From Akkermansia muciniphila (GTDB lineage Bacteria > Verrucomicrobiota > Verrucomicrobiia > Limisphaerales > BJHT01), in contig CAMAUZ010000025.1 in the NCBI GenBank assembly GCA_945861535.1, forward strand, positions 23,396 to 87,395: DNA of 64,000 nt. The letters are read 5' to 3'. Position numbers and translations under genes: made by a program. Under the pieces are notes generated by a model. That model was not told the origin of the DNA. It worked only from the letters and a program-made list of their open reading frames with translations, and made no database searches. Of this stretch, positions 36,322-63,852 are shown piece after piece (within the stretch, counting starts at the first letter, position 1; each line of letters begins with the position of its first letter).

Positions 36322-36383
36322 GGTGGGATATTCCCACCGGGGCCGGGCACCGTCAAACTCGACGCCCCGCCCCCACGCGGCCG

Positions 36384-36648
36384 GAGCGCATTTGAGTTTC
36401 CTGCAACCTTCGGCGGGCACGGGTGGTGTGCTCGCGGAAACCCGCGGCGGCACGCGCGCGGGCGCGGTGGGGCAGGCATCCTTGCCTGCCGGCTCGGGCG
36501 GCATCCCTGCCGCCCGTTTCCATGGCCGAGCACGCCCGCGGAACTGGGAACACGGGGCAGGGATGCCCCGGCAACTGGCAGGCAAGGATGCCTGCCCCAC
36601 CCGGCTGGCGCGGAGGCCAAGCCGCGTCCCAGAAACTGAGGTGCGCCC
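36384..36648. repeat. T1 terminal-inverted-repeat element enclosing family A hairpins
   Basis: Left AGCGCATTTGAGTTTCCTGCAACCTTCGG; right AGAAACTGAGGTGCGCCC; hairpins GGGGCAGGCATCCTTGCCTGCC...GGCAGGCAAGGATGCCTGCCCCAC at 36468-36600. Confidence 0.8.
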
Positions 36649-36649
36649 A

Positions 36650-36755
36650 AGCGGCTGGAGCGCGGCGGTGTCGCAGATCAGCGGCAGGACGCCCGTCCGG
36701 TGGGAAGGCGGGAAACATTCCGAGACTGTCCAGCAGGTTCAGCGTGCCGCGGCTG
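36650..36755. repeat. Family J element, copy 2
   Basis: GCGGCTGGAGCGCGGCGGTGTCGC ... GCCGCGGCTGGTGCTCCGC. Confidence 0.5.
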
Positions 36756-43136: not shown

Positions 43137-43276
43137 CTGAGGTGAGTGCATGCCACCGTACGTCCCCACACGCCCAGCGCGGCGTCCGTTCCGCGCGGCG
43201 AAGGGGCGCGCGGCAGGGCCGGGAACACGGGGCAGGGATGCCTGCCCCACACGCCCAGCGCGGGGTTCGGACCGGG

Positions 43277-43495
43277 TGGGGCAGGCATCCTTGCCTGCCA
43301 GTTGGCGGGGCATCCCTGCGCCGTGTTCCGCCGTGGGGACCATCCCTCCGCCGACCGCTGGGAACGGGCGGCAGGATGCCGCCCGAACTGGCAGGCTGGA
43401 AGCCTGCCCCACAGTCCCGGCGCATCCGCGCTCCCGGTCATGCTTGCGCGATGACACCTACCCGCACCGATCGTTGCAAGAAACTGAGCTGCGCC
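43277..43495. repeat. Family A hairpins (43277-43414) followed by a T1 right end (43476-43495)
   Basis: GGGGCAGGCATCCTTGCCTGCC ... GGCAGGCTGGAAGCCTGCCCCACAG; then CACCGATCGTTGCAAGAAACTGAGCTGCGCCCC. Confidence 0.82.
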
Positions 43496-43566
43496 CCGAA
43501 GCGGCGCACTGGCCGCATCCCGCGTGACAAGCCCTGAGGTTCGTGGCTTTATCGCGGCCCATCAAA

Positions 43567-45800: not shown

Positions 45801-46080
45801 GCGGTGCCGGAAACCGGGCGGAAAAATGGGGCAGGGGAGGGACTGGCGAGGGACCGCCGAGTGGTGAGGCGCAACGACAATCTGGTGTCGCATGCGGATG
45901 AAGGTACGGAGGTCAGCAGCCTGTGGAACTGCGGGAGCGGTGATTCACTTCGCGACGATGTTGCCGCCGATGTCCGCGTGAAACCGGAGCGGTCGGTGAG
46001 GCGGACGCTGACTCTGCTTTCCACGCTGCGGCGGAGCAAATGCCGCGCTCCGGGCGTCGCGCGCGGATCCCCACCCTCGC

Positions 46081-46358
46081 GGGCGCATCTCAGTTTCCGG
46101 CAACGATCGGTGCGCGTTGGCGCAGTCCCGCAGGGACGACCGAAAATAGCCCAGCACTTCAGTGCTGGGCGTACGGTCGGGAAACCGGAAAGTCCCGTCA
46201 GGGACGAAAGAGGCGGGATGGCACACGGTTTCTTTCGTCCCTGCCGGGACTGGGTTCGCTACCGACACGGACCCAGCACTGAAGTGCTGGGCTATGGTCT
46301 TTCGCCCGCTGGGCTGGGGATGGGAACCAAAGGGCGTGCGATAAACTGAGATGCGCCC
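46081..46358. repeat. T1 terminal-inverted-repeat element with different hairpin cargo
   Basis: GGGCGCATCTCAGTTTCCGGCAACGATCGGTGCGCG ... ATAAACTGAGATGCGCCCC; inside CCCAGCACTtcAGTGCTGGG, CCCAGCACTgaAGTGCTGGG and GTCCC/GGGAC hairpins. Confidence 0.88.
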
Positions 46359-46423
46359 CCCCCTCGCTTCGGTCGCACTTCTCATTGTCTTTTTCCGGCG
46401 GGGTCGTAACTCTCCGCGCGAAC

Positions 46424-63437: not shown

Positions 63438-63512
63438 AGTTTCTGGTGGGGCGGGACACTGCGCATCCGCCTGGCCCATGACAAGCCTGCATGCCACGAA
63501 AAACTGGTTCAG

Positions 63513-63780
63513 GGCGCATCTCAGTTTCCGGCAGACGGTCTGGCTCCCGCGCCGCGCGGGTGGGGCCAGGCATCCTTGCCTGCCAGTTCACGGGGCATCC
63601 CTGCCCCGTGCTCCCACCCGGTGACCCGCCCCGCCGTCGGCCGTTGGGAACGGGCGGCAGGATGCCGCCCGAACTGGCAGGCTGGAAGCCTGCCCCACAG
63701 CCCCGGAACCTCCGCACGCCATGGCCTCCTTCCGGGACGGCTCCAGCGCGCACCGATCGTTGCAAGAAACTGAGATGCGG
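63513..63780. repeat. T1 terminal-inverted-repeat element enclosing family A hairpins
   Basis: GGCGCATCTCAGTTTCCGGCAG ... GCGCACCGATCGTTGCAAGAAACTGAGATGCGG; hairpins at 63561-63700. Confidence 0.88.
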
Positions 63781-63852
63781 CCGCTGGTTCACCCTTCCGC
63801 CCGCAGTGACTCTTTGAAAAGGACCCCGAAGGCGGAGCGACCGGGGAGTTTA

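What the first reader, a model, noticed from the sequence alone, without database searches (positions are those of the whole stretch)
46081..46358. Same terminal inverted repeat, different hairpin cargo: modular T1 cassettes
The end (G)GCGCATCTCAGTTTC..GCAACGATCGGTGCG recurs at 46081, 63748-63780 (inverted), 43466-43495 (inverted) and, diverged, at 36384 and 36632. Three of these sites carry GGCAGGC/CGGGGCA hairpins; the 46 kb copy instead carries CCCAGCACTtcAGTGCTGGG and GTCCC/GGGAC hairpins. Constant ends with swappable interiors suggest modular assembly rather than simple copying.
Basis: partly seen in the sequence, partly recalled or inferred. Interest (0 to 1): 0.78.

Follow-up and report, generated by a model that had tools for sequence, protein, structure and literature searches.

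The report
ISKra4 miniature transposons carrying REP palindromes
The repeat is a short, gene-less jumping element of a Verrucomicrobia genome whose constant ends belong to one transposon family (ISKra4), while its changeable, hairpin-rich middle has in several cases been taken from a different kind of mobile repeat; such composites are known in outline, but this mix and a traceable swap of middles are not documented in the papers I could search.

Summary
"T1" is the terminal inverted repeat (GGGCGCATCTCAGTTTC-TGCA) of an abundant family of about 220-280 bp non-autonomous elements: 234 ends in this 7.9-Mb genome against 3 for a reversed control. A sample of 51 complete copies shows 9-bp target duplications and at least three unrelated interiors (34 GGCAGGC type, 14 Acido-Lenti-1 type, 2 CACCCGGCT type, 1 other). 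The 46-kb copy is an Acido-Lenti-1 one. The ends are those of ISKra4-family insertion sequences: about 1.5-kb elements in related genomes have the same ends, 9-bp duplications and an ISKra4 transposase. The host has only a weak remnant of that gene. Several interiors match the paired palindromes that flank RAYT (Y1/HUH) transposase genes. The Rfam "sRNA" Acido-Lenti-1 (RF01687) sits around RAYTs in 7 of 20 tested loci (14 hits, 0.2 expected) and in 0 of 20 ISKra4 loci. A real core swap is visible: the 63.5-kb type keeps one T1 end plus the first Acido-Lenti-1 hairpin, then changes into the GGCAGGC core. So these are ISKra4-type MITEs that carry, and have exchanged, REP-like cores. Within a class, copies arose by ordinary transposition, so "modular assembly rather than copying" is only partly right.

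The parts
46081..46358 (+). T1 element, Acido-Lenti-1 (class C) interior; non-autonomous ISKra4-type MITE, 278 bp
   Evidence: perfect 16-bp TIR, 86 similar matches genome-wide, closest 95% identical over 283 bp
46072..46080 (.). left target-site duplication CACCCTCGC (8/9 with the right one)
46359..46367 (.). right target-site duplication CCCCCTCGC
46081..46102 (+). left TIR/end, same as ISKra4-family IS end GGGCGCATCTCAGTTTC-TGCA
   Evidence: matching ends on 1.47-1.5 kb ISs in related genomes
46337..46358 (-). right TIR/end
46123..46320 (.). interior core with hairpins GTCCC/GGGAC and CCCAGCACT/AGTGCTGGG in inverted arrangement; similar cores occur without T1 ends with the same left boundary
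46124..46169 (-). RF01687 Acido-Lenti-1 match, 60 bits
46272..46315 (+). RF01687 Acido-Lenti-1 match, 42.7 bits
63512..63782 (+). T1 element, GGCAGGC (class B) interior, 271 bp; TSDs 63503-63511 ACTGGTTCA and 63783-63791 GCTGGTTCA
63727..63782 (-). stretch of the class B copy shared with the left end of the 46-kb copy (T1 end plus outer Acido-Lenti-1 hairpin remnant, read on the - strand); breakpoint to the GGCAGGC core follows
   Evidence: 86% over 56 bp; class consensus 80-100% identical over this stretch, then 0-45%
36384..36648 (+). T1 element, GGCAGGC (class A) interior, diverged ends; TSDs 36375-36383 ACGCGGCCG and 36649-36657 AAGCGGCTG
43270..43496 (+). truncated T1 copy: GGCAGGC core and right end only (43463-43496)
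   Evidence: no left end within 5 mismatches

Best explanation
T1 elements are miniature, non-autonomous derivatives (MITEs) of an ISKra4-family insertion sequence. Shown by sequence: the ends match those of about 1.5-kb ISKra4-type ISs in related genomes, and insertion makes 9-bp duplications. Inferred: an ISKra4 transposase, supplied in trans now or in the past, cut at these ends and pasted the elements; since it needs only the ends, the interior is free to change. Several of the interiors are inverted pairs of REP-like hairpins of the kind that flank RAYT (REP-associated Y1/HUH) transposase genes; Acido-Lenti-1 (RF01687) is one such repeat family, the CACCCGGCT type another. Inferred: REP units entered T1 MITEs, or replaced interiors by recombination at shared palindromes, more than once, and the composites were then spread as units by the ISKra4 machinery. 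In class B one such replacement is directly readable.
For: ENDS: 27 of 51 complete copies have >=7/9 matching TSDs against 0.4% in shuffled pairings, and exact matches peak at 9 bp. The transposase fragment next to a T1 end (L202) hits ISKra4. Full ISs carry the same ends: L226 1500 bp, TSD AACCTGATC 9/9; L399 1474 bp, TSD TGCGGCACA 9/9; L238, L236 and L234 with 9-bp TSDs and more or less diverged ends. The transposases of L226 and L230 pass the curated NF033572 cut-off (208.5 and 209.7 against 205 bits). CORES: RF01687 found in 7 of 20 RAYT loci (14 hits, 0.20 expected, P about 2e-9), as inverted pairs flanking the RAYT in L261, L262 and L266; 0 of 20 ISKra4 control loci. The D-type core matches both sides of the RAYTs in L281, L295 (same genus) and L297; L198, L359/L383, L353/L377 and L397 interiors also match RAYT loci at E 5e-6 or better, while the best control match is 7e-4. 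SWAP: classes B and C share one T1 end plus the GTCCC hairpin at 80-100% over about 55 bp and then diverge to 0-45%, while A and B share the GGCAGGC core. Acido-Lenti-1 cores without T1 ends can start at the same base, 46123.
Against: No intact ISKra4 transposase in this genome assembly (only a weak remnant, 29.6 bits), so current mobility is not shown. The GGCAGGC core, the commonest one, is not convincingly tied to RAYTs: one locus (L177), one side, about what chance gives. A second set of 20 RAYT loci had no RF01687 hit, so that link holds for some RAYTs only. The host's own Acido-Lenti-1 pairs lie 600-1000 bp from a RAYT that has other flanking repeats. RAYT units carry no T1 ends, so how cores entered T1 elements is not observed; no clean empty site was found.
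Confidence: 0.8

Rival explanations
1. T1 is simply a set of independent MITE families, each an internal-deletion derivative of a different ISKra4 IS, and the interiors are old IS or host DNA that became palindromic; no REP acquisition.
For: MITEs sharing only TIRs are common (established knowledge); L231 (1059 bp) is a real internal-deletion derivative; L402/L426 interiors weakly match ISKra4 loci.
Against: The Acido-Lenti-1, D and L198/L359/L353 interiors match RAYT-flanking palindromes and not ISKra4 loci; Acido-Lenti-1 and GGCAGGC cores also exist without T1 ends; the class B junction runs just past a hairpin of the other core.
Confidence: 0.1
2. The interiors are functional RNA or bidirectional terminators selected for in place (as the Rfam label sRNA suggests), and T1 ends only spread them.
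For: RF01687 is catalogued as an sRNA; the elements are strongly self-complementary (z -13.4 and -8.6); the 46-kb copy lies between two long ORFs.
Against: Very high copy number with TSDs; presence as inverted pairs at transposase genes; many unrelated interiors between the same ends. Does not explain the RAYT link.
Confidence: 0.06
3. Programmed modular assembly: an active mechanism that exchanges cassettes between constant ends.
For: About 20 interior clusters between the same ends; one clear swap.
Against: Interiors form a few multi-copy classes, each with its own subterminal sequence; no recombinase or recombination site was identified; ordinary recombination at shared palindromes plus transposition suffices.
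Confidence: 0.04

Closest known systems
ISKra4-family insertion sequences (p-MULT 4 group, PMC3942029) and MITEs derived from them
   Same: Same ends and 9-bp duplications on the full-length ISs found here; transposase passes NF033572
   Different: T1 elements carry no transposase, and several interiors derive from another type of mobile repeat; the preference for sites just upstream of sigma-A promoters reported for some ISKra4 members was not seen
REP/REPIN and RAYT units, including TIRYTs (PMC2817692, PMC3116915, PMC3733652)
   Same: Several interiors are inverted pairs of hairpins like those flanking RAYT genes in the same order
   Different: Here they are enclosed in DDE-type TIRs with target duplications; IS200/IS605-type enzymes are described as making neither (PMC2817692)
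Acido-Lenti-1 RNA, RF01687 (PMC2864571)
   Same: Two gathering-level hits in the 46-kb element
   Different: Catalogued as an RNA of unknown function; here it behaves as a REP-like DNA repeat of RAYT loci
REP dimers inside larger palindromes in A. variabilis, T. roseum and H. neapolitanus (PMC3733652)
   Same: REP pairs nested inside another palindromic repeat
   Different: There one REP type per host palindrome and no enclosing transposon named; here the enclosing ends are tied to a transposase family and hold several core types
Tn3-derived miniature elements, TIMEs (PMC4133298)
   Same: By title and abstract only: non-autonomous elements that generate mosaic transposons
   Different: Tn3-type ends; paper not read in detail here

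Membership tests
MITE (non-autonomous IS derivative) | Short, no transposase gene, TIRs, TSDs, multi-copy | tested here: met
   51 complete copies examined, most 264-278 bp long; TSD statistics; 234 ends
ISKra4-derived | TIR shared with an IS encoding an ISKra4 transposase | tested here: met
ISKra4-derived | Same TSD length as the parent IS | tested here: met
   9 bp in both
ISKra4-derived | Mobilised in trans by the ISKra4 transposase | not testable with these tools
   needs an assay; host has only a remnant gene
REP/RAYT repeats (interiors) | Inverted pairs flank RAYT genes: Acido-Lenti-1 and CACCCGGCT types | tested here: met
   control
REP/RAYT repeats (interiors) | Inverted pairs flank RAYT genes: GGCAGGC type | tested here: inconclusive
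   one one-sided case, L177
REP/RAYT repeats (interiors) | GTAG or CGTC foot, and cleavage by the cognate RAYT | not tested
   foot sequences not analysed; cleavage needs biochemistry
Acido-Lenti-1 (RF01687) | Score above the curated gathering threshold | tested here: met
   60.0 and 42.7 bits against 37

The most novel reading that the evidence does not exclude
The palindromic interior is not passive: ISKra4-type MITEs need or profit from a fold-back core and repeatedly recruit REP units for it, giving composites that two unrelated transposases (DDE and HUH/Y1) can act on. In the sampled set most interior clusters are more self-complementary than shuffled versions.
Probability: 0.15. Interest if true: 0.75.

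Novelty: new variant of a known kind. Interest (0 to 1): 0.55.

Why it matters
It ties an abundant unexplained repeat of Verrucomicrobiota to a named transposase family and gives a readable example of two mobile-element systems fusing and trading parts. It also suggests that Rfam RF01687, listed as an sRNA and used to annotate genomes, is at least in part a REP-like DNA repeat of RAYT transposases, which changes how those annotations should be read.

Tried and rejected
RAYT units as the T1 parents: no T1 end with 2 or fewer mismatches in 38 RAYT loci. An autonomous element in the host: none found. GGCAGGC-RAYT association: not significant. Empty site in G001 for the 43- and 46-kb copies: downstream genes align (88-95%) and lack T1 there, but the other flank does not align, so not a clean empty site. 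Insertion just upstream of promoters, reported for some ISKra4 members (PMC3942029): no signal in 102 flanks with a simple sigma-70 score. RAYT loci from the order of an acidobacterial hit: the tool did not accept that centre. RF01687 in a second set of 20 RAYT loci: none. No paper on ISKra4 MITEs with REP cores or on Acido-Lenti-1 as a RAYT repeat was found in the library.

Full report
OBSERVATION. The sequence at all five places is as described. The 46-kb element is 46081-46358 with a perfect 16-bp TIR; the 63.5-kb one is complete, 63512-63782; the 36-kb one is 36384-36648; the 43-kb one keeps only its right end. The window lies in a 7.94-Mb, 169-contig genome. The 15-base end with up to 2 mismatches occurs 234 times there against 3 for the reversed control, so chance is excluded.

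ANATOMY. In a 2.02-Mb sample of the genome plus shorter loci, 51 complete pairs were extracted. Most are 264-278 bp long. With the end written GGGCGCATC, the flanking 9 bases match in >=7 of 9 positions for 27 of 51, against 0.4% for shuffled pairings, and exact matches peak at 9. Interiors: 34 GGCAGGC type, 14 Acido-Lenti-1 type, 2 CACCCGGCT type, 1 other. The 46-kb interior contains two gathering-level RF01687 matches. The window copies tested are fold-back structures made of several small hairpins.

WHO MOVES IT. T1 ends occur in many genomes of the order. One, in G045, abuts the end of a decayed ORF that matches ISKra4 transposases. Searching the order with that fragment brought full-length elements with the same ends: L226, 1500 bp, TSD AACCTGATC on both sides, 485-codon open frame; L230, 1473 bp; L238, L236 and L234 with more or less diverged ends and 9-bp TSDs; L231 an internal deletion of 1059 bp. 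A scan of named genomes gave L399, 1474 bp with a perfect TSD, and L401, 1485 bp, in an acidobacterial MAG; most other hits are MAGs labelled Verrucomicrobia. The transposases of L226 and L230 pass the curated ISKra4 cut-off. The host itself has only a weak fragment. Trans-mobilisation is therefore inferred from ends and duplications, not shown.

WHAT THE INTERIORS ARE. Y1 transposase genes (PF01797) are present in 49 of 58 genomes tested in the order. Of 20 loci around their best matches, 7 carry RF01687, 14 hits in all, where 0.20 would be expected from each genome's own density (the density is a lower bound for a few genomes because only 86 candidates per genome were scored). In L261, L262 and L266 the hits flank the gene as an inverted pair. 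Twenty ISKra4 loci have none. A second set of 20 RAYT loci also has none, so only some RAYT lineages are involved. The CACCCGGCT interiors match both flanks of the RAYTs in L281 (G045), L295 (G001, same genus) and L297 (G018). Interiors of T1 elements from other genomes (L198, L359/L383, L353/L377, L397) also match RAYT loci at E between 1e-25 and 5e-6, while the best match to ISKra4 control loci is 7e-4. The control set is smaller (81 against 168 kb). The GGCAGGC core has a single one-sided RAYT neighbour and stays unassigned.

THE SWAP. Class C (Acido-Lenti-1) and class B (63.5-kb type) share one side: T1 end, subterminal GCAACGATCGGTGCGCGTTGGCGC and the outer GTCCC hairpin, 80-100% identical in 20-column windows over about 55 positions, after which identity falls to 0-45%. 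Classes A and B share the GGCAGGC core and differ on that side. So one end type occurs with two cores and one core with two end types. A B-like copy is also in the sister species G001 (G001:C106, 84% over 221 bp), so the exchange is probably older than the species split or was transferred. Some cores of the Acido-Lenti-1 type without T1 ends begin at the same base as inside T1, though several such copies keep decayed T1 traces nearby.

GENERALITY. Among 54 elements from this and other genomes, the interiors fall into 21 similarity clusters, most of them more self-complementary than shuffled sequence. The clusters were defined by simple BLAST linkage, so the number is approximate.

COMPARISON. 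MITEs sharing only TIRs are ordinary, and REP pairs nested in other palindromes were noted in PMC3733652, which also describes RAYT relatives with TIRs, including acidobacterial ones. What is added here is the identification of the enclosing ends as ISKra4-type, the RAYT link of RF01687 and a readable core exchange. I found no paper stating these, within a library that lacks most subscription journals.

VERDICT. A real feature, explained as a new variant of a known kind.

Noticed in passing
G000 C18:15326-15627, C16:98005-98289; L410 5815-6133: Tandem T1 insertions: a second T1 end starts directly after the target duplication of the first element (e.g. AACAGCGAT in L410).
   Followed up: partly
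L176 (G000 C15:34054-37398): RAYT gene flanked by an array of CAACCCC/GGGGTTG and CCAGGGG hairpins, with Acido-Lenti-1 pairs 600-1000 bp downstream, one of them next to a degraded T1 end.
   Followed up: partly
L184 (G000 C118:17374-20607): Y1_Tnp gene surrounded by at least six copies of the hairpin CTCGACATT/AATGTCGAG.
   Followed up: no
L199 (G045 C16), locus about 1499-1569: T1 element of about 70 bp with no hairpin core; could be an empty precursor or a deletion product.
   Followed up: no
L401 (QIAW01000344.1): A full-length ISKra4-type element with T1 ends in a MAG labelled Acidobacteria; horizontal transfer or misbinning.
   Followed up: no
PMC13298647: Acido-Lenti-1 hits are reported next to KLIKK protease genes in Tannerella and discussed as possible regulators; a REP-like origin could be considered there.
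   Followed up: no
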